From Hyphomonadaceae bacterium TMED5 (GTDB lineage: Bacteria > Pseudomonadota > Alphaproteobacteria > Caulobacterales > Hyphomonadaceae), in contig NHBK01000005.1 in assembly GCA_002173095.1 (NCBI GenBank), positions 1-64,000 of the forward strand: DNA of 64,000 nt, in the 5' to 3' direction. Every line of letters starts with the position of its first letter. Within the stretch, counting starts at the first letter, position 1. A program made the position numbers and the translations under genes. Of the stretch, positions 11,089 to 29,857 are shown one piece after another. Below the pieces are notes generated by a model that was given only the letters and a program-made list of their open reading frames with translations, ran no database searches and was not told the origin of the DNA.

Positions 11089-12294
11089 CTATCGGCGGAT
11101 AATATAGAAGCCAACCGTCTGATAAATCTCTCGCCCCGCAACGCGGCATTGAGACAAATCCTGTCCATCATGCACTTCGAATTTCCACTCAGACACCGTG
11201 TCGAGCACGCGGTCTTCAAAATTGCCCGGAGGCACTGCGGCGAGCAATTTAGGCTCAACCACATTGCCGTCAGCGTCGATCGTGAAGCGCACGATGACTG
11301 TGCCGACCCGCATATTCCAGCCCGCGACGGACGGATAGCTTAGCTCGCGCGTCTGGTTCACACGGCCACGACAGAATGGAAGCGGACGCTCGCCCGGCTC
11401 GTAATATTCCATGCGCGACAGCATTGGTATGGAATAGGCAGAAGACACAGACGCGCGCTGCGCATTGGACATGGATTCCAGTTGATTGCGTACAGCACGG
11501 CCATTCGAGGATGAGGCCTGCCCCTCAAAGGATCGATACATCATATCGGCCGCATGCATCCAGGCGTCACCATACCAGCGTGTATCTTCCAGCCAGTCTG
11601 GAATCTCCTCTCCGGAGTTCCAGACCTGCGCCCAGTACTGCTCGCCTTCCAGCTGCCAGCGATAGAGACGCTCATGCGCTTCAGCAGAGGGCTCATGCAT
11701 GAAGTGAGAGATCGCAGCTGACTCTGTTGCGTTGAAGTAAAGCTGCGGAATGGAGCTCTTGAACGGGCGCATATGGTCGGCAGCCGCACTTGCCGTGCGC
11801 ACGGCATCCCGCCAGCGACTGGATCCGCCATAGCCGGTGTAAAGGTCTATCCAGGCACGCAAGGTCAGCATGCTCGGCTCCGTGACATTCATCAGCGAGG
11901 CTTCAAGTTCGCTACGGCTTTCGCTGGTGGAATCATCACAATACCGCGCATAGGCCAGAAGTACCCGGCGATCTTCCATAAGTGGATGAGATGCTGTCGC
12001 CTGCTGGCGCATCGCGAAATCCGCGCCGGGAATAGCCGCCGCACATTCTTCCTGTTCAGCGAGTTTCAGTGATGCCTCAAACGCCGCCACTGTGGCATCA
12101 GGGTCCGATGGATTGGCCATCGCTTCATTCATCAGGGCTAGGGCAGCCGTTTCTATGCGGCCCGGTGAGCCATTGCTGACCGCATCATTAAACGCGGACA
12201 GAACATCACCATCCATCTGAGCCTGTGCAGTGCCAGAAACACCAAAGGCACAGACGGCCGCTAAAATATATCGGAAACTCAAAACTCGCCCCAC
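11089..12294 (-). CDS. TonB C-terminal-domain periplasmic protein
   Basis: The 401-residue protein starts with a cleavable signal peptide ending in GTAQAQ. The middle (residues 30-290) is alpha-helical and repeat-like, without a family I recognise. The last 90 residues form a TonB C-terminal domain: GWNMRVGTVIVRFTIDADG, then PPGNFEDRVLDTVSEWKFE. Unlike TonB itself it lacks a membrane anchor and a Pro-rich spacer, so it probably does not energise receptors; such proteins occur in alphaproteobacteria as stand-alone periplasmic factors. Conserved Cys near the end (FCRGR, SQCRVAG) may form a disulfide. Confidence 0.7.
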   Translation of the reverse strand: MGRVLSFRYILAAVCAFGVSGTAQAQMDGDVLSAFNDAVSNGSPGRIETAALALMNEAMANPSDPDATVAAFEASLKLAEQEECAAAIPGADFAMRQQATASHPLMEDRRVLLAYARYCDDSTSESRSELEASLMNVTEPSMLTLRAWIDLYTGYGGSSRWRDAVRTASAAADHMRPFKSSIPQLYFNATESAAISHFMHEPSAEAHERLYRWQLEGEQYWAQVWNSGEEIPDWLEDTRWYGDAWMHAADMMYRSFEGQASSSNGRAVRNQLESMSNAQRASVSSAYSIPMLSRMEYYEPGERPLPFCRGRVNQTRELSYPSVAGWNMRVGTVIVRFTIDADGNVVEPKLLAAVPPGNFEDRVLDTVSEWKFEVHDGQDLSQCRVAGREIYQTVGFYIIRR

Positions 12295-12394: not shown

Positions 12395-13216
12395 TCAGCC
12401 AAACCGCACCGACAGTGTACCGAACGGGTCGGACAAAACACGCAAAAGCGTCGTTCTGAGAACCTTTGGGCTGACCGGTTTGGTCAGGAAATGATCGGCA
12501 CCTGAATGTTCGATCTGCATCCGGCTGAGCTTGTCATTATTCGCTGTAAAAAAAATGACAGGCGTTGAGCTGTCAATCTCAGCTTCGCCAGCCCGGATGG
12601 TGTTCAACAATTCCTTCCCCGTAACCGGAGCCATATTCCAGTCCGTGATGATGACGTCAGGCGCAAAGGATTTCAGCGCCTGCAAAACCTCAAGCCCCGA
12701 TGTCCGGATTTCAAGTTCGCCCACTCCCATATCCTGAAGGTAGTTCTGCAGAATTTCCCGAACATACGGGTCATCATCGGCCACCAGAATACGGCTGCTT
12801 TGCAAAACGGCCTCTTCCACTGAACCCTTATCTGAAGCGTTGAGCTCATCATCTTCGGACAAAAGATCATTTGAGATGAGACGGGAATGCTCCGGCGTCA
12901 CCTCATCCATCAGGTCTTCAATCTTATCGAGCCGCATGATGAGCGCCTCATAAAGGTCATCAAAATTCACCTTGGGAGATTTGATCGCGCGAGCCAGACG
13001 CTCTTCAGCGCGAGAGAACTCTCGTCCCAGCGCCCGGAATCCCATGCACTGCGCCGCTCCGCTCATCCGGTGAAGTTCTGCATGAAGGTCGGAAAGGGTT
13101 TGCTGACTGCAAAGATTTGCGGCGTGACATGCCGTCAAATGCTGTCGAACGGACTCATACTGCGAAGGAAATGCTTCGCAATAGCGCGCTAAAGCTGCTT
13201 CTAGTCTGTGTCGCAA
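12395..13216 (-). CDS. Hpt-REC phosphorelay protein A (copy 1)
   Basis: The 273-residue protein joins an N-terminal helical Hpt-like domain (about 1-110) to a C-terminal CheY-like receiver (about 141-262). The Hpt motif is LHAELHRMSGAAQCMGF, with His49 the likely phospho-acceptor. In the receiver, the acidic cluster is ADDDP, Asp192 is the acceptor in TDWNMAPVTG and Lys246 is in the TKP motif. It starts at a TTG, which matches the length of its paralogue at 19867 within two residues. It follows gene B by about 60 bp and both are divergent from the kinase at 14392. It has no output domain, so it should pass phosphate on or bind a partner protein. Confidence 0.85.
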   Translation of the reverse strand: MRHRLEAALARYCEAFPSQYESVRQHLTACHAANLCSQQTLSDLHAELHRMSGAAQCMGFRALGREFSRAEERLARAIKSPKVNFDDLYEALIMRLDKIEDLMDEVTPEHSRLISNDLLSEDDELNASDKGSVEEAVLQSSRILVADDDPYVREILQNYLQDMGVGELEIRTSGLEVLQALKSFAPDVIITDWNMAPVTGKELLNTIRAGEAEIDSSTPVIFFTANNDKLSRMQIEHSGADHFLTKPVSPKVLRTTLLRVLSDPFGTLSVRFG

Positions 13217-13277
13217 AGTGCCCGCCCGATGATTGCCCGGCTCCGTTCATAGCGAAACTTCCGGCAAATTTGAAGGT

Positions 13278-14126
13278 CTAGTTGCGTGCGCGGCGGCTCA
13301 GTTTGAACCGTTTGGCGACCGTCTCTGCAACTGCATCGATCAGCACCTCAGGAAGAACCGGCTTCCCAAGCAGTTTGTTCGCACCCGCCTTCAGCGCCTT
13401 GCGGCGATCATCTCGCGTTTTATGCGCGGAGAACAAGAGGATCGGCGTATCGCGCGGAATGGGCGTGCGGCCATTGCGGATAACCTGACACAATTCCAGC
13501 CCGTTCACAGGTGACATTTCCCAATCCGTGATGATCAGAGTTGGCTGGTATTCTTTCAAAGCCTTGATCGCGTCTTCGCAATTGCGCGCCGTTTCGATCT
13601 GCTCAATGCCGGAATCCTCAAACGTGCGCGCTACAAGTGCGCGAATATAGGGATCGTCATCCACAAACAGAATGCGCTCACGGTTCAGAAGACGAATGCG
13701 TGAGGCATCACGCACCTTCATCGCCTCGGTATCTGCCTCGCCCTCGCGCAGAACTTCCAGCGCCGTTGCCCGGTTCAGGAGTTTGGACCCGGAAGGATGC
13801 AGATCTCCGCGATAGGCTTTCAGCGACTCGATACGCTTGCGCACATCCGTCAGGCAGTTCGTGTCATCCAGATTGGGCATATCGAGATAGCGCTGGATCA
13901 GCTTGTCGACATCCTCAATCTCACCGCCCAGGAACCTGAATCCCATACAGTGTGCGGCGCCGCCAAGCCGGTGCGTCTCAACATGCAGATCGGCCAGGGT
14001 AGAAAAGGCTCCTGCGGCGTCGCGCTCAGCATCATCCATCAGCTTTTCGAGGGCCTGAATCTCGCTTTCATAATTGGTGCAAAATCGAGACACGATTTCA
14101 TACATCTGATCTTGTTGCGCACTCAT
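13278..14126 (-). CDS. Hpt-REC phosphorelay protein B (copy 1)
   Basis: About 282 residues from the ATG at 14126, which has AGGTAAGG upstream; an upstream in-frame start would add 26 unlikely residues. The Hpt motif HVETHRLGGAAHCMGF carries His52. The receiver begins with FVDDDPY and has Asp201 in TDWEMSPVNG and a final GKPVLP Lys. It aligns without a gap around both phospho-sites with the protein at 20775 (also His52 and Asp201), making the two direct counterparts of the duplicated cassette. It is the first gene of the minus-strand pair. Confidence 0.87.
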   Translation of the reverse strand: MSAQQDQMYEIVSRFCTNYESEIQALEKLMDDAERDAAGAFSTLADLHVETHRLGGAAHCMGFRFLGGEIEDVDKLIQRYLDMPNLDDTNCLTDVRKRIESLKAYRGDLHPSGSKLLNRATALEVLREGEADTEAMKVRDASRIRLLNRERILFVDDDPYIRALVARTFEDSGIEQIETARNCEDAIKALKEYQPTLIITDWEMSPVNGLELCQVIRNGRTPIPRDTPILLFSAHKTRDDRRKALKAGANKLLGKPVLPEVLIDAVAETVAKRFKLSRRARN

Positions 14127-14391
14127 GGCCTTACCTCCCGGGACGGTCTTTGAAACAGGACCTAACAGGTAAAATTTAAAGAAATTAAAATTAAGATTTT
14201 CCAAATCCGAAGTGCAGGTAAGACGTCGTTAGTCAACCAAAGGTTAAACCCCGCCCTCAAATTACCTACCCAAAATAAACTATTGAAAAATATGAATTAA
14301 ATTTCGAAATTCATTCCCGGGTAACAGTTTTATACGCCGCATTCATCTTTTTTCACTAATCGTGAATGGCTGCACAGACCGGGGAACCGCA

Positions 14392-17300
14392 ATGCCATTC
14401 AACACAGTTTCAAATTCGTCACTGCGCCTGAAAATCATTGGCCTTTGTTTCAGCTTCGCACTGATTGGAACCTTGTTTCTCGCTGTGCTCAATCATTCGA
14501 AAAATCTCGAACTGGCCGAGGCCAATGTAGAAACCATCCTGAGCGCCGACAGTCTTGTCGTATCGACCCGTCTTCGTGAAGAACTGCTTACGCTGGTCGA
14601 AGACGCGCGCGTGGTATCTCTCACCCCCCCAATTCGAGGTATTGTTCGCGCATCCGAAAATGAAGGCATCGACCCGTTTGACGGTTCAACAGAAGAACTT
14701 TGGCGCAGCCGTCTATCCACGATTTTCACGTCATTGCTGGGCGTGCGCTCGCACTACTCGCAGATGCGGTATATCGAATTCGCGAATAATGGGCGCGAGC
14801 TTGTACGCGTAAACCGTATCGGTAGCTCGGTCTTCACCGTTCCGATGGATGAGCTGCAGCAAAAGGGCGAAGAGCCTTATATGCGTCAGGCGATGCAATT
14901 GCAGCCCGGCGAAGCGAGTTTCTCCGAAATCACTCAGAACCGGGAGAATGGCGAAGTCGAACCGAATGCATCCCCTACTTTGCGCGTTATGCTACCAGTC
15001 TTCGACAGTTTGGGACATGCTTTCGGTGTCATCGTCATCAATGCCGATTACAGAGCGCTCGTTTTCGACGTTCTGAACGAGACGAAACCAGAGTTTGATA
15101 CGTTCGTGCTGGATGCATCAGGCAATGTGGCGGCCTATGAAGGTGCAACTCAGACACCTGAATTCATGTTTCCAGGAAGCATTCCCGGTGATTTGGCTAC
15201 ATCATTGATGAGCCTGCGCCAGAACGAAATGCGCACGCTGCAATCATCTGACGATAACTATGCGATCGCGAACCGCCTTGACCATCTGCTACCCAACTCC
15301 GAGTTTCACCTGGACATCGTGGTCCAGGGCAAGCGATCAGAGCTGTTCGCTGGCGTTCGAAATGCGCAATGGCTCTCAGTTATTCTGACTTTAATACTGC
15401 TCGTAGGCCTGTCAGCCGTCGCAGCAATACTCGCGGCCCGGCTCACACGCCCGCTGAAAAAGATGACAGATTCCATTGAGCTCTATGCGAGCGATCCTGA
15501 CAATCAGGAACTTGTTCTGCCCACAGAGTCGGGCACCGAAATCGGCGCTCTTTCCCGCTCATTTACTCATCTGATTGGCGAATTGAATGACGCCAAGAAG
15601 ATGAAGCGCAATGTGATTGATTATGCGGTAGATGGCTTGATCGTGATCACGCAAACCGGCGTCATCAAAACCTTCAATCCGGCGTGCGAAGAGATTTTCG
15701 GCTATAAGTCGCAGGATGTTCTGGGGCGAAACATCAAAATGCTTATGCCACCGGCATCGGCAGACAAACACGATCAATATATCTCCGAAGCCAAAAGTGA
15801 CGTTGAAAGGCACATTATTGGCCGCACGCGCACCATATCCGCACGCAAAGCTGACGGCACCGACTTCCCGGTAGAGATATCCATCAGCCGCTTCACGCAA
15901 GGCGATCAAACCTATTTCTGCGGCGTTGTTCGCGATATTTCAGACATCGTAAAAGCCAATAACGACCTGGCAGAGCAAAAACGCACACTGGACCTCACCA
16001 TGGAAGGGGGCCGCATCGGCACCTGGAGTTTCCATGTAATGAGCGGCCAGATCGACTTCTGTGAACGCTCTGCTGCTCTGCTCGGCTATTCAGCCGAAGA
16101 GCTCGGCGCAGGCGGTCTGAACTGGTACCGCATGATTGAGCCGTCCCAGTATGAGCGGGTGATGGAGGAGCTTCGCGCCTTTATCGTCGGCGACACGCAC
16201 GCCTTCGAGACTGAATACAAAATGCAAAAACGAACTGGCGACTGGATCTGGGTTCAGTCGCGCGCCACGGTCTCAGATCGTGACGCCCAGGGGTTCGTCA
16301 CCCGTCTGACCGGCCTGCACTTTGACATTACCGAACGCAAAAGCAGCGAACTGGAAACCATTGAGAACAACCGACAGCTGGAGCTTGCAGAGACGGTTGC
16401 CGAAATGGGCCATTGGAGCATGGACGGTGCCACGGGTGAGCTCTACTGGTCTGAAGGTATTTACCGCATTCACGGACTGTCATCAGACTCAATGGACCCA
16501 AATGTCGACGATGCGGTTCAGCATTATCATCCTGATGACCGAGCTGCCGTCGCTGAGTTCGTTCAGGAAGCGACGATGAATGGCACACCGTTTTCCTTTC
16601 AGATGCGCCTTATCCGCCCGGATGGTGAAATTCGTCACGTGCTTTCCAAGGGCGACTGTTTCCCGAACCCGGATAATCCGCGACGGTTCAACGTTTTCGG
16701 CATCTTCCAGGACGTCACTGATAAGGTCATCACTGACTCCCGTCTTGCCGCGAGCGAGGAGAAGACCCGACTGGTTCTGGAAAACATTGTCGATGGTGTT
16801 CTGACCGTAAATGAAGATGGTCTCATCGACACCTGCAACCCAGCCTGTGCGTCGATTTTCGGCTATGAAGGCGATGAGCTGATCGGTCAGCCACTGACCA
16901 TTCTGGTTCCAGACGAGTTTGCCGATGCCCACCGCGCCGGCTTCCGCAGAGTCATTGAAACGGGCGAAAGCCGGATCATTGGCAAAACGCTGGAGCTGGA
17001 AGGCGTACGCAAAGACGGCCAACGCTTTGCGCTGGAGCTGGCCATCAGTCGCTCGGAGCTTGGCGGCCGTAATATGTTCACCGGCATTCTGCGAGACATC
17101 ACTGAACGCAAGAATATGGAAACGATGAAGAATGAGTTCGTCTCAACCGTCAGCCATGAACTGCGCACGCCGCTGACATCCATTTACGGGTCACTTGATC
17201 TGCTCAAAGGTCTGTCCACTGGCAAGCTGGACCCGAAATGTGAGCGACTTGTCAGCCTAGCACACGATGGCTGCGGACGTCTCAGCAACCTTGTGAACGA

Positions 17301-17850
17301 CATTCTCGACGTCGAGAAAATCGCTGCCGGTAAGATGGATTACGCGATGGAAGACGTTGAGCTGAAACCGCTTATCACCAGCATAGTTGAAGGCAATGAG
17401 GCGCTCGCTCAACGTTTCGGTGTCAACTTCGTTCTGGACCAGCATCTGGAAGACCATCACGTCAAAATGGACCCGGCTCGCTTCACGCAAGCTATGGTGA
17501 ACCTGCTCTCCAATGCGGCGAAATTCTCGCCATCGGGCGGCGACGTCATCATTAGAACGCAGCGTATTTCGGCACACACGGTTCGTATTGGTGTTACCGA
17601 TTTCGGCCCGGGTATTCCAAAAGCCTTTCAGGACCGTATTTTCGAACGCTTCTCTCAAGCCACCGGTCTGAAAAGCCCGAAGCAGGCGGGCACCGGGCTC
17701 GGCCTGAACATCACGAAATCCATCATCGAAGCCTTTAATGGCCAGGTATCATTTGAAACACAGGAAGGCGTGGGGACGACCTTCTATTTCGATCTGCCAA
17801 TTCACGGACAGCGCCTCGCGCCGCCGCACACACTGGCATTTGCGATCTAG
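14392..17850 (+). CDS. Membrane histidine kinase with four PAS domains (copy 1)
   Basis: The 1152-residue sensor kinase has a membrane helix at about 10-30, a periplasmic sensor region to about 325, a second helix near 330-350 and a HAMP linker. Four PAS units follow (about 405-515, 535-650, 660-780, 790-905). The HisKA motif is VSTVSHELRTPL with His922, followed by an HATPase domain with NLLSNAAKFSP, TDFGPGIP and GTGLGLNITK. There is no receiver in the chain, so it is not a hybrid kinase. The start at 14392 is chosen for GGGGAA upstream. Its partners are probably the receiver gene 30 bp downstream and the Hpt-REC proteins around it. Confidence 0.92.
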   Translation: MPFNTVSNSSLRLKIIGLCFSFALIGTLFLAVLNHSKNLELAEANVETILSADSLVVSTRLREELLTLVEDARVVSLTPPIRGIVRASENEGIDPFDGSTEELWRSRLSTIFTSLLGVRSHYSQMRYIEFANNGRELVRVNRIGSSVFTVPMDELQQKGEEPYMRQAMQLQPGEASFSEITQNRENGEVEPNASPTLRVMLPVFDSLGHAFGVIVINADYRALVFDVLNETKPEFDTFVLDASGNVAAYEGATQTPEFMFPGSIPGDLATSLMSLRQNEMRTLQSSDDNYAIANRLDHLLPNSEFHLDIVVQGKRSELFAGVRNAQWLSVILTLILLVGLSAVAAILAARLTRPLKKMTDSIELYASDPDNQELVLPTESGTEIGALSRSFTHLIGELNDAKKMKRNVIDYAVDGLIVITQTGVIKTFNPACEEIFGYKSQDVLGRNIKMLMPPASADKHDQYISEAKSDVERHIIGRTRTISARKADGTDFPVEISISRFTQGDQTYFCGVVRDISDIVKANNDLAEQKRTLDLTMEGGRIGTWSFHVMSGQIDFCERSAALLGYSAEELGAGGLNWYRMIEPSQYERVMEELRAFIVGDTHAFETEYKMQKRTGDWIWVQSRATVSDRDAQGFVTRLTGLHFDITERKSSELETIENNRQLELAETVAEMGHWSMDGATGELYWSEGIYRIHGLSSDSMDPNVDDAVQHYHPDDRAAVAEFVQEATMNGTPFSFQMRLIRPDGEIRHVLSKGDCFPNPDNPRRFNVFGIFQDVTDKVITDSRLAASEEKTRLVLENIVDGVLTVNEDGLIDTCNPACASIFGYEGDELIGQPLTILVPDEFADAHRAGFRRVIETGESRIIGKTLELEGVRKDGQRFALELAISRSELGGRNMFTGILRDITERKNMETMKNEFVSTVSHELRTPLTSIYGSLDLLKGLSTGKLDPKCERLVSLAHDGCGRLSNLVNDILDVEKIAAGKMDYAMEDVELKPLITSIVEGNEALAQRFGVNFVLDQHLEDHHVKMDPARFTQAMVNLLSNAAKFSPSGGDVIIRTQRISAHTVRIGVTDFGPGIPKAFQDRIFERFSQATGLKSPKQAGTGLGLNITKSIIEAFNGQVSFETQEGVGTTFYFDLPIHGQRLAPPHTLAFAI

Positions 17851-17880
17851 TAAAATCACGGGGAACAGGGACCAAAACAT

Positions 17881-18288
17881 ATGGACAGCATGCCGAACAA
17901 GATACTGTATCTTGAAGACGACGCACATATCTCGGAAATCGCCATTATGGCGCTGGAGGACTTCTCAGATTTCAATGTACGTCATTGTTCACATGGCAGC
18001 ATGGCGATTGAAACTTTTCGCGCTTATCAGCCAGATCTCTTGCTGTTTGATGTCATGCTCCCGGATATTGACGGCGTCGAAACCTTGCGACGTATCCGCC
18101 AACTACCAGGCGGCGAGCATATTCCGGTCATCTTCATGACGGCCAAAGTTCAGAAGCACGAACAGCAAGCCTATATGGATCTTGGCGCGCTGTCCGTGAT
18201 CGTAAAGCCGTTTGATGCGCTCAACCTTGGTGATCAGATCAAGTCGATATGGTCGGCCAGACAAACACCATCTGTCTTATCCACATAA
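17881..18288 (+). CDS. Single-domain response regulator (copy 1)
   Basis: The 135-residue protein is a receiver domain only. It has acidic YLEDDAH, phospho-acceptor Asp57 in LLFDVMLPDIDG, a Thr switch in FMTAK and Lys in VKPFD. With no output domain, it fits a CheY- or Spo0F-like shuttle that takes phosphate from the kinase encoded immediately upstream and passes it to an Hpt protein. All catalytic residues are present, unlike the copy-2 counterpart at 24212. Confidence 0.92.
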   Translation: MDSMPNKILYLEDDAHISEIAIMALEDFSDFNVRHCSHGSMAIETFRAYQPDLLLFDVMLPDIDGVETLRRIRQLPGGEHIPVIFMTAKVQKHEQQAYMDLGALSVIVKPFDALNLGDQIKSIWSARQTPSVLST

Positions 18289-18342
18289 TCGACACCTCGC
18301 CTTAGGATTCCATCTACTTTCTTCTGTTGAGCTGACTTTATT

Positions 18343-19158
18343 ATGAGCGCCACGGACATCATCACCCGATATTGCGCGAGCCTTGATACGCAACTGATCG
18401 AGCTCGCTGAAATCCTCAAAAACGCAGCAGAAGGCGTGACCAGCATCACATCTGCGCTGGTCACCCTGCATGGCGAGCTTCATCGCATGGGCGGAGCGGC
18501 GCTGTGCATGGGGTATTCGCATTTCGGAAACCGCATCAAAAGTTTTGAGCGCGACGTAGAGGCAACCATTCTCTCTGAAATCGAACCGGAACGGGAACTT
18601 CTGGGCATATATTTCGAAGAAATCGCGACAATCGCGCGCCTTGCAGAACATGTCCAACCGAAAAACTCACTGCTGTTGCGCCAAAAAAAATTGGAAAGCC
18701 AAAGTGCTCTGAAGCCAGCGGTCAACATGATCCGGACGGCTCAGAAGGACGTGCTTCAGTCACAACGGGTGTTATTCGCAGATGATGACGCATCCATACG
18801 CGATCTGATGCAAGATATTCTGGTCTCTTTGCAGGTTGAAGCCGTCGCGACGGCATGTGACGGCGAAGAATTGCTGAATAAAGCGCCGGACTTCTCTCCA
18901 ACAATCATCATAACCGACTGGCATATGCTGCCGTGTGACGGAATGCAGGTTCTGAGCCGCATCCGTTCAGGCGAAGCTGGTATTGATAAACAGACACCAG
19001 TGATCTTCCTCACTTCAGAGCGGACGTTGAGCGAAGTGCAACATGTGATCTCCAGCGGAGCAGATCAGTTCCTGGTCAAACCCTTCAGCATGCGCACTGT
19101 TGAACGGGTGCTGAAGGACGCCGGCGTGCAGTCCATCGGCTCCTACGCGCACGGCTAG
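18343..19158 (+). CDS. Hpt-REC phosphorelay protein C (copy 1)
   Basis: This 271-residue protein is the third Hpt-REC protein of the first cassette. The Hpt motif LHGELHRMGGAALCMGY has His47. The receiver has FADDDAS, Asp192 in TDWHMLPCDG and Lys246 in LVKPFS. It lies 54 bp after the receiver gene in the kinase operon. Its partner in copy 2 (24654) is the closest relative in the window, sharing HRMGG[AS]ALCMGY. A Cys follows the phospho-acceptor region in every paralogue, which is not part of usual Hpt motifs. Confidence 0.87.
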   Translation: MSATDIITRYCASLDTQLIELAEILKNAAEGVTSITSALVTLHGELHRMGGAALCMGYSHFGNRIKSFERDVEATILSEIEPERELLGIYFEEIATIARLAEHVQPKNSLLLRQKKLESQSALKPAVNMIRTAQKDVLQSQRVLFADDDASIRDLMQDILVSLQVEAVATACDGEELLNKAPDFSPTIIITDWHMLPCDGMQVLSRIRSGEAGIDKQTPVIFLTSERTLSEVQHVISSGADQFLVKPFSMRTVERVLKDAGVQSIGSYAHG

Positions 19159-19492
19159 CGAAATTATATATGATTTTCATGTCGCTTAGGTTGCAACGTC
19201 AGGCGAAATGAGCACATAACACGAATACATCTCAAGGTTGCCGTAATGACAGTTCTTAATGCCTTCGCCTGCCCAGAATTCGAGATTTTAATCGAATTTT
19301 CAAATAAACTATCGTAATCAAACGCTCACAGCGACAGAAAGTAGCTTATTTTACTGGCAATTTTGGCGACATAGCGGATATTTTTGTCGCTTCGCAGCGC
19401 TTTATTTGATCATGTGTAATTATTTATTTCGAATTGTCTTTTGAAATGTTATGGGAAGCTTGGGCAGGCGCAAAGTTGATCAAGAGCTTTAT
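19159..19492. other. AT-rich intergenic region between cassette copies
   Basis: About 330 bp without a convincing gene. It contains AAATAAACTAT at 19302-19312, the same 11-mer that occurs at 14273-14283 ahead of the copy-1 kinase, followed in both cases by AT-rich sequence. It is a plausible promoter region for the lone receiver gene at 19493. No terminator hairpin is evident. Confidence 0.4.
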
Positions 19493-19870
19493 ATGATCAT
19501 CCACTATCTAGAAGACAATCTTGACTGGTGTTTTCAGCTTCATCACTCCGTATCCAAACGACTTGATGCAGCTCTGACCACCAGCCAGAATTTAGAAGAA
19601 ATGTGCGATTATCTGTCCCGCAATGACGCCGACCTCATCCTGGTGGATATTCGTCGACCGGACGCCTTGTCTCTGAAGGACGATGTTCAGCATATCCGGA
19701 AATTTTCCAAAAAGCCGATCCTGTTCATAACGAATGCAAATTGCGATCTGACAGAAGAAAGGGCGCGGCAAAGCGGCGCCCTTGGTGTTCTGGATAAGAA
19801 CCAGGTGTCTATTGATGGCTTTCTGGACGAAGTCACTGCCATTTATGACGAACAGATCCGCCGCGTTTAG
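19493..19870 (+). CDS. Lone receiver-domain protein between the two cassettes
   Basis: About 125 residues from the ATG at 19493. An earlier ATG at 19451 would add 14 residues with no ribosome-binding signal, and the chosen start matches that of the other lone receivers. The receiver features are HYLEDNLDW, Asp in LILVDIRRPD, Thr in FITNA and Lys in VLDKNQV. The LPxxDG loop of classical receivers is missing and the region after Asp is divergent, so it may be a specialised or weakly active receiver. Its stop overlaps that of the opposite-strand gene at 19867 by 4 bp. It has no counterpart after copy 2. Confidence 0.7.
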   Translation: MIIHYLEDNLDWCFQLHHSVSKRLDAALTTSQNLEEMCDYLSRNDADLILVDIRRPDALSLKDDVQHIRKFSKKPILFITNANCDLTEERARQSGALGVLDKNQVSIDGFLDEVTAIYDEQIRRV

Positions 19871-20724
19871 GACGTCGCCTCGACCTCGGACCTTGCATCC
19901 TGCTCAACGGCCACGCCGGCTCGGCGTTTAAGAATATCAATCAGCGCAAACTTCACGACACGCGGGCTGACCGGTTTGGTCAGATGCTTGTCTGCACCAT
20001 TGCATTCAATTTCCATTCGGCTTCGCCCATCACGGCTCGACGTAAAGAACACAACGATTGTATCCTCTGCCAGGTCTGTTCCGCCATTGCGAATGCACTG
20101 AAGAAGCTCCAGCCCGGACACAGGCTTCATTTTCCAGTCTGTTATGATGATATCGGGCCTGAAATCGCTTGCCGCGTTGATCACCTCCAGCCCCGAAGAG
20201 ACTGCCATGACGCGCTTCACACCGATATCCATCAGATAAGTCGAGAGAATTTTCTGAATGAATGGGTCATCATCAGCCAGAACGATGCGCTGATCGCGCA
20301 GGACATCCAGCCATTCCTCGTCGCGGCCTTCTTCCAGCAATTCCTGCTGGTTCCAGTCCTCCACCAGATTATTCATGATGAGACGCGACTTGTCCGGAGT
20401 GATATCGGAAAGCATCAGATCCAGACGCGCAATACGAAATTCGAGCTCATCCAGCGTTTCCTGAATCCCGCGCGTGTGCAGACGAAGGGATTTGGAAATT
20501 TTGGTATCCATGCGTGAAAGTTCGCGCCCGAATTTCCGATACCCCATGCAATGGGCCGCGCCTTTCATGCGGTGCAGCTCAACATGCAAATTGCGAGCAA
20601 TATCCTTGGGATGGATCGAGGAATATTTCCGGGTGTTGTACAAATCATAGAGGCTCGCCAACTGATCAGGCAGCTTCTCACAATAGTCACCCAGTATTTG
20701 TCGAAGTGTTTCATCAGTCTGCAT
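19867..20724 (-). CDS. Hpt-REC phosphorelay protein A' (copy 2)
   Basis: This 285-residue protein is the copy-2 counterpart of 12395-13216. They share LH[AV]ELHRM[SK]GAA, a TPxxSRLI segment after the Hpt domain and GAD[HK][FH]LTKPVSP at the end. Likely phospho-sites are His51 and Asp196 (TDWKMKPVSG). AAGGAT precedes the ATG. It is the second gene of the minus-strand pair, 50 bp after its neighbour. A C-terminal extension of about 20 residues is unlike copy 1. Confidence 0.86.
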   Translation of the reverse strand: MQTDETLRQILGDYCEKLPDQLASLYDLYNTRKYSSIHPKDIARNLHVELHRMKGAAHCMGYRKFGRELSRMDTKISKSLRLHTRGIQETLDELEFRIARLDLMLSDITPDKSRLIMNNLVEDWNQQELLEEGRDEEWLDVLRDQRIVLADDDPFIQKILSTYLMDIGVKRVMAVSSGLEVINAASDFRPDIIITDWKMKPVSGLELLQCIRNGGTDLAEDTIVVFFTSSRDGRSRMEIECNGADKHLTKPVSPRVVKFALIDILKRRAGVAVEQDARSEVEATS

Positions 20725-20774
20725 TTTTTATATCCTTTTCAGACCGGCCTTCTGATTGCCGAACCCGCGACAGC

Positions 20775-21629
20775 TCAGCCTACATCCCAGACCTTGTTCC
20801 GCGTTTGAAAGCGCTTGCCGACAACTTTCAGAACAGCCTCTGAGAGCTCAGACGGAAGGAGAGGCTTAGACAGAAGCTGATTCAGACCATATCGGTTGGC
20901 TTCCATAATGCCTTTACGGTCCTTCACAGCTGTAAAGAACATCACCGGCGTATCACGCTCGAGCGAAGTACGGCCCTGGCGGATACGTTTCAGAAGCTCA
21001 AGGCCACTCACCGGTTCCATATTCCAGTCCGTAACAAGGACGGTCGGCTCGAAAGTTTCCAGCATATCGAGAACTTCACGACCTGAAGAAGCCACGGCGA
21101 TGTCGTTCACACCCAGCTCAGTCAGGGTTTGCTCCATCAGTTCGCGCACATATGGATCATCATCAGCGAAGAGGACCTTCTCACGGCCCAGAATACGCAT
21201 TTTGGCATTCTCGGAGGCACGCTCCAGCTCGCCGTCTTTCTCAGCTGCTTCCAGCTCTTCTAGCGCAGATGCGCGGTTGATTAGCTTGGAGCGTGCTGGC
21301 GACAACCATCCAAACTCGCGGTTCACCGCTTCCAGTTTGCGTCGAATGATCGGTAGCGTCTGACGAACACGGTCCGGTGATGCCCCATTAAGCGACATCA
21401 CTTCACGGTCAATTTTTTCGAGCTCACGGCCCACCTGCAGAAAACCCATACAGTGCGACGCACCGCATAGTCTGTGAGTTTCTGCGTGGAGTTTATGCAG
21501 ATTTGTAAAATGCTCGGGCGCCGTACTCATATCTTCCGGGATCAGACTGATCAGGCCTTCAACCTGACCGGAAAAATCATTGCAGAACCGAGAAACGACA
21601 CTCAACATTTGGTTGTTTATATTTCGCAT
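20775..21629 (-). CDS. Hpt-REC phosphorelay protein B' (copy 2)
   Basis: About 284 residues from the ATG at 21629, chosen because the copy-1 counterpart begins at the same aligned position (MRNINNQM against MSAQQDQM). The Hpt motif HAETHRLCGASHCMGF has His52. The receiver has Asp201 in TDWNMEPVSG and the SKPLLP Lys. An ATG at 21638 is also possible. It is divergent from the frameshifted kinase at 21906 across about 275 bp of AT-rich sequence that should hold promoters for both directions. Confidence 0.86.
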   Translation of the reverse strand: MRNINNQMLSVVSRFCNDFSGQVEGLISLIPEDMSTAPEHFTNLHKLHAETHRLCGASHCMGFLQVGRELEKIDREVMSLNGASPDRVRQTLPIIRRKLEAVNREFGWLSPARSKLINRASALEELEAAEKDGELERASENAKMRILGREKVLFADDDPYVRELMEQTLTELGVNDIAVASSGREVLDMLETFEPTVLVTDWNMEPVSGLELLKRIRQGRTSLERDTPVMFFTAVKDRKGIMEANRYGLNQLLSKPLLPSELSEAVLKVVGKRFQTRNKVWDVG

Positions 21630-21905
21630 GGTCTCCATCCCAATTACTTCAGGCTTCAACTGGTGATAGGCTATCAATACGGGATTAATTAATAAAAACG
21701 CGAAATCCTAATCCCTGAAGGCAATTTCAAAAGCCATTAATTAAATATCTCTTAAAATCCATTCTTCACTTATCTATACTTGAAGCTGATTAAGTGGAGT
21801 TTCCGGTCTTGCCTTCAACGTAACCCCACATTAACGTGTTTAAGCGTGTTGTTAACATATTCGCCTACAGAATAAGTCCAGTGTCAGGGTCTAAAGGTGT
21901 TTACC

Positions 21906-24196
21906 ATGCACAACGACAGGTTTCATATTAATTCGCTGTCCGCAAAGATTATCTTGCTCTGCGGGGTTATCGCTTTGCTCGGAATGGGCGGCGTTATCTG
22001 GATGAACTCCATTCGGGCGCACAATCAGGCCTTTTATACTGCCGAAGCTCAAATGCGCTCAGAAGGTCGACTTATTACAGAGAACGTCGAAAGTGTCCTT
22101 CACACCCTGCGCGAGGACACCGAGATCGTCGCTCTTTCGCCTGATGTTCAGCTGATTGCGGATCACTTTTCCGGCCAATTCGAAGAGACCACGGACTACA
22201 TTACCTTACAGAATGCCCTGAGCACGACGTCACAACTCTTCATGAATGTGATGGAGCGCAGACCCCACGTCTTCCACTACGCCTGATCTCGACCGCCGAT
22301 AACGGTCGCGAGATCGTCCGGGTCAACCGCTTTGGCGACACGCTGGTTACGGTGAGCAATTCAGAGCTTCAGGATAAGGGCGAAGAACCATACATGCAGC
22401 TCGCGCGCACTTTGGCACCGGGACAGGTTGCGTTCTCCGAAATCGATCTAAACCGTGAGAATGGCGTTGTAGACCCGACAAGAACGCCGACAATCCGGGC
22501 CATCACACCTGTCTCAACACGAAATAGCGCAGTGCCCGGCGCCGCGGTCGTGATCAATGCAGATTATGGCGCCATTCTTCAGGACATGGTCAGTTCCATG
22601 AATATTGAAGTTGATACGCTTATCTTCAACGAAGAAGGCGATTCACTTCGCTATGATCCAGCGACAGGCATGTCAGAATTGCTTCTGGCGGAAGAGGCAC
22701 CTGAATATCTTAAAAACTTCATTGCCGATTTTGCAGATGCGCCAAACGAGCAAATTTTCCAACGGGATGGTGTTTTCTACCATGCTTCCACGGACCAGAC
22801 TCTGGTCAACAATCCCGGACGCAGCTTCACCGTTCTTCAGACCGTTCCAAATGAGCTGATCTATTCAGAGTTTGCTTCCAACTTTGCAGAAAACTTCGCT
22901 TTTGCCGGGCTTTTAATGGCAATCTTTCTGGCATGCGCCACAATCGCCGCCTCAAGGCTCACAGCGCCTTTACGCTCGGTCACTTCGACTCTGCGCACTT
23001 TCCCGACAGGCCATGACGTCGATGAGCTGAACCTTCCATACGATCGCAATGATGAGATTGGCGATATGTCCGTCGCCTTCCGTGACCTCATGAATGAACT
23101 CGCACGGGAGAGGATGCAAAAGCAGAAATTCTTCCAACACGCTGTCGACGCTTTTGCCATGATCGACCGCAACGGCATCATTCAGTCCGTCAATCCAGCC
23201 TGTGAAGAGTTGTTCGGCTATAGCGAAGAAGAATTACTGGGCCAGAATGTCAAAATGCTGATGCCAATGCCCTATAGCGGTGAGCACGATCAGTATCTTG
23301 CGAACTATCAACGCACTGGAAAAGCCAAGATTATCGGGATTGGCCGAGACGTTGAAGCGACACATAAAGACGGGTCAACTTTCCCAATCAGTCTTTCCAT
23401 TTCCCAATTCTATCAGAACGGCCAAGTCTATTATTGCGGCTCCATGCGGGACATCTCAAACCGCAAGCAAATGGAACGCATGAAGGATGAGTTCGTCTCT
23501 ACCGTGAACCATGAACTCCGGACTCCGCTCACCTCGATCTTTGGCTCTCTCGACCTCCTGCGCCGTATGTCGGAAGGAAAACTGGATGAGCGCTGCGAGC
23601 GTCTTATCACTCTGGCACACGAAGGCTGTAGCCGCCTCACCAATCTGGTGAATGACATTCTGGATCTGGAAAAAATTGCTGCAGGCAAGATGGAATATCA
23701 TCTTCAAACGCTCAGCGCCCAGGAATTGGTCGAAGACGTTGTTCGTCGCCATGAGACCCTGGCAGATCGGTTTGGCGTTCGCTTCCTGGTGCAACATTTT
23801 TGCGAAGACCAGACGGTCACGGTGGATGCCAACCGGTTCAATCAGGCGTCAGTCAATCTATTATCCAACGCTGCGAAGTTCTCTCCGGATGGTGGCGTGG
23901 TCTCTATCTGGACAGAAGCAAACGCGGATAAATTCATTCGCATCTGTGTTCGCGATGAAGGCCCGGGAATTCCAGACAATTTCAAAACTCGAATTTTTGA
24001 GAAGTTTGCGCAGGCGGACGGGTCTAATCAGCGCAAAACACAAGGCACTGGCCTTGGCCTGAACATCACGAAAACGATTATTGAAGCATTTGGTGGTAAA
24101 ATCGCTTTCGAAACAGAAATCGATAAAGGAACGACATTCTATTTCGACCTGCCGGAGAGTGCTGAACTCGACCAGCCCCTGCAGGTCGCATCATAA
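21906..24196 (+). pseudogene. Membrane histidine kinase (copy 2), single-base frameshift
   Basis: This is the counterpart of the copy-1 kinase. The first part reads from the ATG at 21906 (AAGGTG upstream) to a stop at 22284-22286. The second part continues in another frame to 24196. The break lies at about 22280: adding one C (CTAC-CGC-CTG) restores a continuous match to copy 1 (RLISTADNGRE against RYIEFANNGRE). Domains after repair are two membrane helices with a periplasmic sensor, HAMP, one PAS, HisKA (VNHELRTPL) and an HATPase domain (NLLSNAAKFSP, GTGLGLNITK). It has one PAS where copy 1 has four. The break could be real decay or a sequencing error. Confidence 0.85.
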
Positions 24197-24211
24197 GGAA
24201 AGGAATGCATT

Positions 24212-24613
24212 ATGGGAGCTGATTTACAAAGGGTCCTCTATCTTGAGGATGATCCGAACATCGCCGAAATCGCACAGATGGCGATGGTCGACATCTCCGG
24301 GCTGAACGTCCTTCACTGCGCTTCTGGTGGCGCCGCCATAGAGAATTACGCGCGTTTCCAGCCGGATCTCCTGCTGTTCGAAGTCATGCTGCCTGATATG
24401 GATGGCGTTGAGACCCTTCATGCCATTCGCGAAGCTCATGGCTCGAGCACACCGGTTATCTTTATGACCGCAAAGGCTCAGACGCACGAACAGCAGAAAT
24501 ACATGGACGAAGGCGCACTCAGCGTAATCGTCAAGCCGTTCGACGCCTTCCATCTGGGAGATCAACTCAAATCTCTCTGGTCTGCGCGAGCGCCATTGAA
24601 AATGGGCGCATAG
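24212..24613 (+). CDS. Single-domain response regulator (copy 2) with Glu57 in place of Asp
   Basis: This 133-residue receiver is close to the copy-1 protein throughout (YLEDD, PDLLLF-VMLPD-DGVETL, FMTAKAQ/V, SVIVKPFDA). The phospho-acceptor position reads Glu57 (GAA, in LLFEVMLPDMDG), where copy 1 has Asp57 (GAT). Acidic residues that coordinate magnesium, the Thr and the Lys remain. Such a receiver cannot be phosphorylated at the usual site. Asp-to-Glu changes in some receivers mimic the active form, so it may be locked on. It lies 15 bp after the kinase gene. Confidence 0.9.
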   Translation: MGADLQRVLYLEDDPNIAEIAQMAMVDISGLNVLHCASGGAAIENYARFQPDLLLFEVMLPDMDGVETLHAIREAHGSSTPVIFMTAKAQTHEQQKYMDEGALSVIVKPFDAFHLGDQLKSLWSARAPLKMGA

Positions 24614-24653
24614 ACCGGCGCAAAAAGCGCTATGTCTTCCAGAAAGGAACCCA

Positions 24654-25486
24654 ATGCCCTCAGAAGAGAACAAAGCGTCGACAATTGTCGGCGATTACTG
24701 TGTGAAACTGCCCGACGAGATGCGCAGCGTTACCAATCTCATGGAACGCGCATCAAAGGATCAGCTCGACAGTCTGAATGCACTGAAAGCTCTCTACGCC
24801 GAACTTCACCGAATGGGCGGAAGTGCGCTGTGCATGGGCTATCCGTTTCTGGGTGAATCCATGCGCGAACTCTCCAATGTATTGGCCGAAAAAATTGCCT
24901 CTACAGAGCAGGCTAATGGACGCTTCTACGTCAACATCGCGCAGCAAATGGAATCTCTGGCGCGGCTTGCCTCTCATATTCGACCGGAGCAGTCTCAGTT
25001 TCTTCAAACGGCCCAGCGTCGCGACTCTGCGACCGCTGAGAACGCCAATGCAAAGCCCACAACGGCAAAGCCAGAGGACTTTTCATTACGGCGCGTCGCA
25101 TTTGCAGATGACGATTCCACCATACGAGCGCTCATGCGCAACATTCTGAGCGATCTCGAACTTGAAGCGTTTGAGGTTTACGAGAATGGCGAAAAGCTTC
25201 TACTGAAGGCGCCGCTTCTGAAACCTGATCTGATCATTACAGACTGGTTGATGGCCCCTGTTTCGGGTCTTGATCTGGTGCAAACCGTGCGAAGTGGAAA
25301 GTCAGTCTGCCGAAGGAAACCAAGATTATTCTTCTCACGTCAATCAACACTCTGGACAAGGTTGAACTGGCCGTGAAACAGGGGGCAGACCATTTTCTGG
25401 TCAAGCCATTCTCCGTGGGCGGCGTCGCAAAAGCGATCCAACGGGTGAGCAAGCAAACAAGCCCGGCAACCGCTAGCGCGGCGTAA
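24654..25486 (+). pseudogene. Hpt-REC phosphorelay protein C' (copy 2), frameshifted
   Basis: Counterpart of the gene at 18343. The intact part has the Hpt motif YAELHRMGGSALCMGY (His52) and receiver Asp197 in TDWLMAPVSG. Near 25295-25303 the frame is lost: one missing A in GGAAAG would restore it. The following frame then gives KIILLTS, GADHFLVKPFS and a stop at 25484-25486, all expected receiver features. Without repair the protein ends at 25376 after an unrelated tail and lacks the Thr and Lys of the receiver. Its 3' end overlaps the convergent receiver gene by 14 bp. Confidence 0.83.
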
Positions 25487-25871
25487 ACTCCAAGGCGAGC
25501 TGTTCCAGTGCGGCAGTCGTGATCGGCTTAGACACGAATGTGTCTATAAGCGGATGCGCCTCTGCCCGTCGCACATCTTCCGGATCAATCGTGCCGGACA
25601 CCATGACCAGCAGAGTTCCCTTGCGAAGCTCCTCATACAACTCGCCATAGGCATCCAGAAACTCCCAGCCATTCATGCGCGGCATATTGATGTCCAGGAA
25701 AATAGCATCGATCTGAGACCGGCCGGCATTTTTCAAATAAGCCAGAGCATCATCTGCATAAATGAACTCCAGAATCTCGTTTGCAGCGTCAGCCTGTCGG
25801 AGAACGCACGCATGCAGAAAATTGTCATTGGCATTGTCATCAATGAGCATGACAGTCCCGAATTTCTGCAT
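25473..25871 (-). CDS. Single-domain response regulator, Rcp1-like
   Basis: The 132-residue receiver has MLIDDNANDN, acceptor Asp in IFLDINMPRMNGWEFL, Ser/Gly in MVSGT and Lys in VSKPIT. The DDN-x-x-D and NMPRMNG pattern is like the Rcp1-type receivers that sit beside phytochrome-like or PAS kinases. It starts 18 bp after the stop of the CheB-CheR-kinase gene, so both are one operon and are probably partners. It belongs to a different receiver subfamily from the cassette proteins. Confidence 0.88.
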   Translation of the reverse strand: MQKFGTVMLIDDNANDNFLHACVLRQADAANEILEFIYADDALAYLKNAGRSQIDAIFLDINMPRMNGWEFLDAYGELYEELRKGTLLVMVSGTIDPEDVRRAEAHPLIDTFVSKPITTAALEQLALEFTPR

Positions 25872-25889: not shown

Positions 25890-28800
25890 TTATTTTTTCA
25901 AAGCAATTTTGAACAGCGTTCCCGGCTCATCCTGATCGTCTATCCAGATGCGCCCGCCATGCAGCAGCAGAATCCTGCGACAGGCCGCCAACCCCAGTCC
26001 GATGCCGTCATATTCATGCATGGCATGCAGCCGCGAGAACATCTCAAAGACCTTTTCGCGATACTGGCCGCCAATCCCAATCCCGTTATCGGAAATGGAA
26101 ATGATATGCTCAGTCGCAGTTTCTTTCGCCGTCACGACAATACGCGGAGGCTTTTCCGGATCGCGATATTTCAGTGAATTAGACGACAGATTTAAAGCAA
26201 CCTGCGTCAGGAGGCCCGGCTTGCCCCTTACAGTGGGAAGTGGCGTCAGCGTAAGCTAGGCGCCATTCTCCTTGAACTTGTTCTCGAGCATACGCTCGGC
26301 TTCTGTGAACACGCTTTTCAGTTCAACAGCCCCGAATTCCTGCTGATCATTAAACAGGCTTCCGAATTCCAGAATACCAATGATCAGCTTGCGCATGCGC
26401 TGATTACCCTGACGGATGGTGTCCATCATCCTTGTGGTGAACTCATCCGCCTGTTCAGACAGATGGTCATTCAGCATGTTGATATAATTGTCGTTGGTCG
26501 TGAGCGGTTCGCGCAGATCGTGCGCCGCAATAAAGGTGAAGCGGCGAATTTCTTCCGCATCCTTTTTCACCTGCTCCTCGCGCTCTTTCAGCGATGTAAT
26601 ATCGACATGGCATCCCACCATGCGAACCGGGTCACCCTCTTCCGTCCATTCAACCACGGCGCCTCTGCACCATACCCAAACGATGGATCCGTCCTTATGG
26701 CGATAGCGCACCTCATTATCATAAGGGATTTCACCATGTGATTTCACATGCGCATCAAAGGTCTCAAGAACGCCCGGAAGATCTTCCGGATGGATGAGCT
26801 CCTGCCAGGCTTCCGGCGTATTCTCGACTTCATGATCTTCATAACCGAACATCTTTTTGAAGGCCGGGCTCAGATACTCGGTATTGTCTGGAATATTCCA
26901 ATCCCAATACCCCGCCATCTGCGCTTCAAGAACGCCCTCAAGAACCTGGTTATTGTCTTCAAGCTCATCCCGCAGGTGTTTCTGCTCCGTCACATCGACA
27001 AAGCTCACCATCACACCACGCGCACGTCCGCTGGCATCGCCATAGGCATCGATACGAGCGATATAGAAATTGCCTGCTATGTCTTCGCATTGGAACTGAT
27101 TTCCTGGCCGCGGCGCGGGGCGATCAATACCAACCTGTTGAGCATCATACGTCCATCCGATACTGGCATCGATCGCATCCAGCAGTTTGCTGTGATCAGA
27201 TGATTTCAGGCGCGATGAGAAGTGCCTGAGCGGACGGCCAACATCATTCGGCGTCAGCGCGAATAGTGTGTTGCTGTGCTCGCTGAAGCGACGAACGCAC
27301 ATCCGGGCGTCCACAAACACGGCGTGCACGGAAGCGTTTGCCAACAGGTTATCGATGTCGGCATTCGCCGCTTCCAGCTCGTTAATTTTCTCTGTGAACT
27401 CAGCGTTGATGGCATAGAGCTCTTCATTGACGCTCTGCATCTCTTCGTTCGTGGCCTGAAGCTCTTCATTGGTGGCCATGAGTTCTTCATTGGTCGTCTG
27501 AAGCTCCTCGTTGGAATCCGCCAACTCTGAAATACTGGTTTCCAATGCCTGGCGCGTAATGCGCAGTTCGGCTTCCAGCTTTCCTTCCCGTTCACTCGAT
27601 TTCTCATGTTCTGAGTAGCCGGCCTCATCACCGGAAGAGAAAGAAAGCGGCTCGAAACGGATCGCAATAATACTCTGCGCATGCGCCCCCATGGAATTTC
27701 CCATGGCCCTGATATGGATATTCAGAGACAGGCTCTCATTGTCGATTTCAAACGGAATTTTAGTGTGCCAGCCATCTCCGTTGGTCGCTGCATTGCTGCG
27801 CAAACCCTGATTGACGACCGTATTCAACGGGTGAGGCAGCAGCTCTGACAGATTATCTGAAAATCCGGAATCAGGCAGGTTCAGAACCCTGCGATACTCG
27901 CCCACTGTTTTGATGACGCGATTGTTTGCATCCACCACAATTGCACAAGTGCTTGATACCCGCAGGATCTGGTCCACAAATGACAGGTCTTTCAGATCCT
28001 GACTTGCACGCGAGACCGCACCTGTGGAGCCCCCCCGGCCTTCGCCACCTGCCATTGGGACAAAATACTTGCCGCTTCGTACCGCGCTGGCCGTCGGGCG
28101 ACGTTGCGGGAAGTCGTTCACGTAAATCCGGAAGCGCTTATTCAATGTGGAGAAATGGACCGTTCCGCGGTCGGCTGACTCACTCAACCCGAGAAACAGA
28201 ACACCACCTTCATTCAGCGAATATGAAAAATTGTCGACCAGACGGTTATGCTCAGACGTCGACAAGTAAATCAACGTGTTTCGGCAGATGATCAGGTCTG
28301 TGCCGATATAGGGCGGATGCTGTGTCGCATCATGCGGCGCCACAATCACCCGTTTCCGGATTTCAGGACTAACGCTCACACCTTCCGACATGAAGCGAAA
28401 CATACGTCCACGAAACTCTGCGGGCACATCCGCCAACACAGAGGACGGGTAAATAGCATGGCGCGCAAACTCGATTGAGGCCGCGTTCAAATCTGTGGCA
28501 AACACGCGAAAATCACGCTTGATACCGCGCGTTTCCCGATACATGTCGAGCATGCAGGCGATCGTGTAGGCTTCCTCACCTGTACTACACCCGACGCTCC
28601 AGACCTTGAGAGGTTGATCTTCGGGTCCTGACGCAAATAATCGCCCAAACGCCTTTTCCCGGAGCGCGTCCCAGGCAGGCATGTCACGGAAAAAGCTGGT
28701 AACCCCGACAAGAAACTCCCGACCGAGTTTCAGACATTCATCCGGGTCGGCTTGCAGGCGGTCCAGATATGGTTGAAGGCCATCATGCTCGCCAAGCACC

Positions 28801-29690: not shown

Positions 29691-29857
29691 TATGCCGCCT
29701 GTAAACAATAGCCGCTTAAATACTGAAGCGAGCCGTAGAAAAAATCAACCTAAAGTCGGCCCCGGAATATATGGACCGGTTCCCGACCTTAAAGGCATTC
29801 CCATGATGAGCAAATTATTGATCGAAACCTGAAATACCAGCATCAGGCCATCATGGG

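What the first reader, a model, noticed from the sequence alone, without database searches (positions are those of the whole stretch)
12395..25486. Two collinear copies of a five-gene phosphorelay cassette
Two minus-strand Hpt-REC genes (B then A) diverge from kinase, single receiver and a third Hpt-REC gene, and this layout recurs at 19867-25486 in the same order and orientation. Each gene matches its counterpart best: A with A', B with B', C with C', by shared motifs around both phospho-sites. Tandem duplication of a whole HK/REC/triple Hpt-REC unit is not a standard two-component layout that I know. The protein logic suggests kinase to receiver to Hpt to terminal receiver, perhaps with three parallel outputs.
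Basis: partly seen in the sequence, partly recalled or inferred. Interest (0 to 1): 0.85.

Follow-up and report, generated by a model that had tools for sequence, protein, structure and literature searches.

The report
Paired branched phosphorelay cassettes in Ponticaulis
A marine bacterium carries, side by side, two old and very different versions of a five-gene signalling cassette in which one sensor kinase probably feeds three small two-part switch proteins; relatives carry one version, and the second version here is partly broken.

Summary
The layout is real. B-A on the minus strand diverge from kinase-receiver-C on the plus strand at 12395-19158, and the same order and orientation recur at 19867-25486. 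Trees of 26 Hpt-REC proteins separate A, B and C completely. Every other Ponticaulis genome held (six) has the cassette, once; two genomes of other genera in the family have only kinase-receiver-C. The cassette is therefore a conserved unit, and the doubling is special to this genome.

The copies are not a recent tandem duplicate: they differ from each other as much as cassettes of different species do (35-42% in A, B, C and kinase, against rpoB 91-94%), and their joint descent is not supported. And copy 2 is damaged: one frameshift in its kinase, one in C', and Asp to Glu at the receiver's phospho-acceptor site.

Best reading: a split, branched phosphorelay, kinase to single receiver to CheA-P1-like Hpt to CheY-like receiver, with three parallel outputs. 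It rests on conserved kinase and Hpt docking helices, paralogue-specific REC output faces, and a beta5 residue that marks R as intermediary and C (mostly B) as terminal. No biochemistry exists. New variant of a known kind.

The parts
12395..13216 (-). B1: Hpt-REC protein, 273 aa
   Evidence: Response_reg E 7e-23, Hpt E 5e-5; in B group of tree; phospho-His H49, Asp D192, Lys K246 invariant
13278..14204 (-). A1: Hpt-REC protein (ORF from TTG 14204; likely start ATG at 14126)
   Evidence: Response_reg E 5e-25, weak Hpt; A group
14362..17850 (+). K1: membrane sensor histidine kinase, sensor (PF21623-like)-HAMP-PAS x about 4-HisKA-HATPase, 1162 aa
   Evidence: HisKA phospho-His at residue 932
17881..18288 (+). 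R1: single-domain receiver, phospho-Asp intact (LLLFDVMLPD)
18343..19158 (+). C1: Hpt-REC protein, 271 aa; modelled (pLDDT 88 whole, 95.5 Hpt alone)
19451..19870 (+). Rx: degenerate receiver-like gene between the copies, distant from R1/R2
   Evidence: Response_reg 25.8 bits, below cut-off; 32% over 63 aa to R1
19867..20724 (-). B2: Hpt-REC protein, 285 aa, intact
20775..21677 (-). A2: Hpt-REC protein, intact (likely start ATG near 21629)
21897..24196 (+). K2: sensor histidine kinase, one PAS, about 755 aa, split by a one-base frameshift at about 22277
   Evidence: two frames joined by homology to K1
24212..24613 (+). R2: single-domain receiver with phospho-acceptor Asp changed to Glu (GAA, codon at 24380)
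24654..25486 (+). C2: Hpt-REC protein split by a one-base frameshift at about 25300

Best explanation
The cassette is a split and branched four-step phosphorelay. The membrane kinase K autophosphorylates on its HisKA histidine and passes the phosphoryl group to the single receiver R, which acts only as an intermediary. R passes it to the CheA-P1-like Hpt domains of A, B and C, which share the docking helix around the phospho-histidine. Each Hpt passes it on to a CheY-like receiver, probably its own, whose alpha4-beta5-alpha5 face has diverged in A, B and C. With no DNA-binding or enzymatic domain in any protein, these receivers would act by binding different targets; motility (a CheY-type effect) is a guess. 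This genome holds two anciently diverged versions of the cassette. In copy 2 the kinase and C' are frameshifted and the receiver has lost its phospho-Asp, so at most A' and B' still work, perhaps fed by K1-R1. Shown: gene content, conservation, lesions in the sequence, domain folds (as models), residue patterns. Inferred: order of transfer, branching, targets, decay as the cause of the lesions.
For: Same five-gene order in all six other Ponticaulis genomes, and K-R-C alone in G015 and G067. In genus g24 of another family a K-R pair lies opposite two Hpt-REC genes. N-domain: four-helix bundle, pLDDT 95.5, nearest natural folds CheA P1 (1tqg Z 14.5, 2.6 A over 105), and profile hits to CheA P1 (2ld6 E 8e-7, 1tqg 8e-6). 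REC: CheY fold Z about 20, CheY best by profile. Phospho-His, Asp and Lys invariant in 26 of 26 Hpt-RECs. Conservation across diverged cassettes: kinase DHp 76%, sensor 32%, R 57%. The helix with the phospho-His is as alike between A, B and C (46-50%) as within each (44-60%), but the REC alpha4-beta5-alpha5 segments are 38-51% within and 18-33% between. Beta5 switch residue (S/T-Y/F coupling, PMC9981736): R has Val in 10 of 10, C Phe in 10 of 10, B Phe in 6 of 8, A Leu/Val in 8 of 8, which fits R as intermediary and C (mostly B) as terminal. Lesions of copy 2; none in about 20 matched flank genes. All nine carriers in the family have FliM, and none of 80 FliM-less genomes carries the cassette.
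Against: No phosphotransfer data. A lacks the beta5 aromatic, so it may not be a standard switch. The helix around any catalytic His is expected to be conserved, so shared docking is suggestive only. The motility link rests on 3-5 independent lineages and no physical linkage to flagellar genes. The flanking genes differ between species and give no hint of a target.
Confidence: 0.55

Rival explanations
1. Reverse order: K phosphorylates the REC domains of A/B/C, their Hpt domains pass phosphate on, and the single receiver R (or distant regulators) is the terminal output, as in relays of the order kinase-REC-Hpt-receiver.
For: Canonical order in hybrid-kinase relays is kinase-REC-Hpt-REC, and a relay with an Hpt-REC protein and a further response regulator is known (CbbRRS, cited in PMC3018481). 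R has no output domain, so it could itself be a CheY/DivK-like effector.
Against: R always lies next to K and is well conserved (57%), like a direct kinase partner. R lacks the beta5 aromatic in 10 of 10 while C has it in 10 of 10. The output faces of A/B/C are paralogue-specific.
Confidence: 0.2
2. Phosphate sinks or insulators: one or more of A, B, C drain phosphate back through R to set signal duration, and only one is a true output.
For: A lacks the beta5 aromatic in 8 of 8; receiver proteins as phosphate sinks are established in alphaproteobacterial chemotaxis (own knowledge).
Against: All three keep complete active sites and paralogue-specific conserved REC faces over the whole genus.
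Confidence: 0.15
3. On the origin of the pair: the two cassettes arose by recent tandem duplication in this lineage.
For: Adjacent, collinear, same orientation; best reciprocal matches; joint clade not rejected in the five-gene set (p-AU 0.07) and recovered when G3 is left out (98/98).
Against: 35-42% identity, no closer than to other species; different kinase layouts; clade rejected at p-AU 0.025-0.033 for K-R-C with outgroups and for K alone; kinase affinities differ (K2 with G3, 96/94; K1 with G1/G2/G5).
Confidence: 0.1
4. On the damage: the frameshifts and the stop near 26256 are sequencing or assembly errors and copy 2 is functional.
For: Single-base lesions in a draft assembly of 27 contigs; catalytic residues otherwise kept in K2 and C2.
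Against: Three breaks fall within 4 kb while about 20 matched flank genes and A1, B1, K1, R1, C1, A2, B2 show none; no long homopolymer at the breaks; R2 Asp to Glu is an independent lesion in the same operon.
Confidence: 0.2

Closest known systems
Spo0 phosphorelay of Bacillus (KinA-Spo0F-Spo0B-Spo0A; own knowledge, Spo0F also in PMC9981736)
   Same: His-Asp-His-Asp transfer carried by separate proteins, with a kinase lacking its own receiver and a single-domain intermediary receiver
   Different: Here Hpt and terminal receiver are fused, there are three of them, the Hpt is CheA-P1-like, and no protein has a DNA-binding domain
CckA-ChpT-CtrA/CpdR phosphorelay of Caulobacter (described in PMC9981736)
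   Same: One phosphotransfer step serving more than one terminal receiver (branching), in an alphaproteobacterium
   Different: There a hybrid kinase and one Hpt serve two receivers; here three Hpt-REC fusions and a separate receiver
CbbRRS of Rhodopseudomonas palustris (PR protein CbbRR1; cited in PMC3018481)
   Same: Contains a protein made of an Hpt and a receiver domain
   Different: Kinase is a hybrid, one PR protein only, further response regulator; no triple set
CheA P1 domain and CheY
   Same: Folds and profile matches of the Hpt and REC domains
   Different: No CheA kinase, P2-P5 or CheW in the cassette; Hpt and CheY-like domain fused in one chain; kinase is of HisKA type
MrrA single-receiver hub of Caulobacter (PMC5964349, abstract only)
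   Same: Single-domain receiver placed between kinases and further phosphotransfer partners
   Different: R here lacks the FATGUY motif reported for MrrA-type receivers and has a dedicated adjacent kinase

Membership tests
Hpt (phosphotransfer) domain | Four-helix bundle with a phospho-histidine in an HxxKG-like motif | tested here: met
   Bundle predicted at pLDDT 95.5; CheA P1 nearest natural fold; His invariant in 26 of 26, motif HR[ML]xG; Pfam Hpt 14-24 bits, just below cut-off for single proteins and absent for C1
Receiver domain (REC) | CheY fold with acidic pair, phospho-Asp, S/T and Lys | tested here: met
   Response_reg above cut-off in all six Hpt-RECs and R1/R2; invariant residues; R2 fails the phospho-Asp
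Multistep phosphorelay | His-Asp-His-Asp phosphotransfer | not testable with these tools
   All four domain types are encoded together and conserved; transfer needs in vitro assays
Intermediary receiver (Rec-inter, PMC9981736) | Loss of the conserved aromatic on beta5 | tested here: met
   Val in 10 of 10 R proteins; the criterion is suggestive, not strict
Terminal receiver (Rec-term) | S/T plus aromatic on beta5 | tested here: inconclusive
   C 10 of 10 and B 6 of 8 Phe, A 0 of 8
FATGUY single receivers (MrrA/SdrG) | FATGUY motif at the end of beta4 | tested here: not met
   R proteins read P[VA][IV]FMTAKAQ at this place
Chemotaxis system | CheA with P3-P5, CheW and receptors in the same cluster | tested here: not met
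   No such domains in the cassette or the flanking genes scanned

The most novel reading that the evidence does not exclude
The Hpt-REC proteins form an undescribed, order-restricted family of CheA-P1/CheY fusions that fan one sensor signal out to several flagellum-related targets, and this genome shows two co-resident, cross-talking versions of it in which the second has lost its input half but kept two output proteins for the first kinase to drive.
Probability: 0.2. Interest if true: 0.65.

Novelty: new variant of a known kind. Interest (0 to 1): 0.45.

Why it matters
If the relay works as inferred, it is a compact natural case of one kinase signal being split among three parallel terminal receivers through a shared receiver, with docking surfaces conserved and output surfaces diverged. 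It would be useful for studying how branching and insulation evolve, and the single-copy, double-copy and K-R-C-only genomes give a natural series. The two co-resident versions, with conserved kinase DHp (78% between the copies), make cross-talk directly testable.

Tried and rejected
Promoter motifs in the A-K divergent regions (EcfG, CtrA, sigma54, sigma70, shared 8-mers): nothing above chance. Plasmid records: no full-length relatives beyond 25% identity. Foreign composition: GC3 of both copies is within the range of flank genes. Functional clues from cassette neighbours in G1, G2, G3, G5, G15: unrelated genes. REC-only profile hits in other families that were opened lack the HRM-CMG motif, and those readable are REC-first proteins, not Hpt-RECs. 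Class-wide search (385 genomes): no full-length relative outside the order. The Caulobacter HmrABCX pathway was read and set aside: hybrid kinase with separate HPTs, other architecture. Structure comparison of the whole C1 model listed only receiver-type chains, so the Hpt domain was modelled and compared alone.

Full report
What is there. The window is contig C12 of a 3.55 Mb genome of the genus Ponticaulis, as the named records of three congeners show (PABS01000046, NZUJ01000027, PBNO01000008, which match G002, G005 and G006 in contig length). At 12395-19158 two minus-strand Hpt-REC genes (B1, A1) diverge from a sensor kinase (K1), a single receiver (R1) and a third Hpt-REC gene (C1). At 19867-25486 the same order and orientation recur. 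BLAST pairs A/A', B/B', C/C' best, and R1/R2 are 67% identical. The genome has no full-length Hpt-REC relative outside these six.

The cassette is a conserved unit. All six other Ponticaulis genomes held carry the five genes once, in the same order (G002 has a second contig with near-identical K-R-C, on an assembly with 6% contamination). In 105 genomes of the family only two others have a full-length relative, G015 and G067, and both have K-R-C without A and B. In another family of the order, three genomes of genus g24 have a K-R pair opposite two Hpt-REC genes, and G289 has K-R-C. None of 385 genomes drawn over the class has a full-length match outside this order. In a tree of 26 proteins, A, B and C are three clean groups. 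K-R-C is thus probably the older core and A/B were added in Ponticaulis (inference).

The doubling is old, or was brought together from two sources. Between the two copies, A, B and C are 35-41% identical and K 42%, the same as between species, whereas rpoB is 91-94% identical in the genus. rpoB places this genome next to G1/G4/G6 (100/99), but the five-gene tree puts both copies with G3 (100/99), and joining either copy to G1/G4/G6 is rejected there (p-AU 0.005 and 0.0002). With outgroups and K-R-C only, that is not decided for copy 1 (p 0.30). By kinase, copy 2 goes with G3 (96/94) and copy 1 with the rest; by A+B it is copy 1 that goes with G3 (93/90). This could be exchange between the copies or long-branch noise, and I leave it open. 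Composition does not mark either copy as foreign. From 30220 rightwards the region is core genome in the genus; G3's cassette lies 15 kb beyond the same flank gene but inverted, and the left flank is not shared.

Copy 2 carries lesions. K2 is broken by one missing base at about 22277 and C2 by one at about 25300; R2 reads GAA (Glu) at the phospho-acceptor codon, Asp in every other R. The neighbouring CheB-CheR-PAS kinase has an in-frame TAG at 26256-26258 just before its ATPase domain. About 20 flank genes compared with relatives show no frame break, so general sequence error is unlikely, though not excluded. A2 and B2 are intact; with so few lesions in all, that is not by itself evidence of selection.

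How it most likely works. Each Hpt-REC has a four-helix N-domain whose nearest natural folds are CheA P1 domains (also by sequence profile), and a CheY-like receiver. The models are of C1; A and B follow by alignment. Residues needed for both phospho-sites are invariant. Across diverged cassettes the kinase DHp is 76% identical and R 57%, against 32% for the sensor part. The helix that carries the phospho-His is as alike between A, B and C as within each, while the receiver's alpha4-beta5-alpha5 segments are paralogue-specific. This is what one common donor and three different targets would leave. A published feature helps to separate intermediary from terminal receivers, the aromatic on beta5 that couples to S/T (PMC9981736). 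R has Val in 10 of 10; C has Phe in 10 of 10, B in 6 of 8, A in none of 8. So R looks like the intermediary, C and B like terminal switches, and A is unclear. I therefore infer K to R to Hpt(A,B,C) to REC(A,B,C). The order, the branching and the targets are not shown. All nine carriers in the family have FliM and none of the 80 FliM-less genomes has the cassette; these are only three independent lineages (five with the other family), so a motility output is a lead, no more.

Comparison. Split relays (Spo0), branched relays (CckA-ChpT-CtrA/CpdR) and Hpt-REC ('PR') proteins (125 in a 2010 census, PMC3018481) are known. I found no description of a kinase-receiver pair with three such fusions, but the library searched is open-access only and the searches were few. 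I rate it a new variant of a known kind.

Noticed in passing
window 25473-25871, 25890-29708 (-): A CheB-CheR-PAS-HisKA-HATPase fusion kinase with a downstream single receiver, next to copy 2; the kinase has an in-frame TAG at 26256-26258 just before the ATPase domain. Only G002 among congeners has relatives (35-37%).
   Followed up: partly
window 12395-25486, all Hpt-REC genes (B1 residues 13 and 57): Two cysteines in the Hpt domain are invariant in 26 of 26 Hpt-RECs at 25-40% overall identity, also in the g24 C-type proteins; G289 lacks the first. By helix register they should lie near each other at the end of the first helical hairpin. Possible redox or metal site; unexplained.
   Followed up: partly
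window 19451-19870: A degenerate receiver gene lies between the two cassettes and overlaps the end of B2 by 4 bases; no counterpart seen in other cassettes. Possibly a remnant of a rearrangement.
   Followed up: partly
window 11089-12294 (-): The TonB-C domain gene beside B1 sits between homologues of the 30220 and 30874 genes in G3 and G5, but not in this genome or G1: a local rearrangement at the cassette locus.
   Followed up: partly
L167 6015-7655, L168 6306-7943, L169 6134-7772: In genus g24 of another family a second, different Hpt-REC (254 aa, Hpt above the Pfam cut-off, without the cysteines) stands beside the C-type Hpt-REC opposite K-R: a two-output version.
   Followed up: partly
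L029-L035 kinases, window 14362-17850: The kinases of the cassette differ in PAS number between species and copies, while the DHp domain hardly changes.
   Followed up: yes
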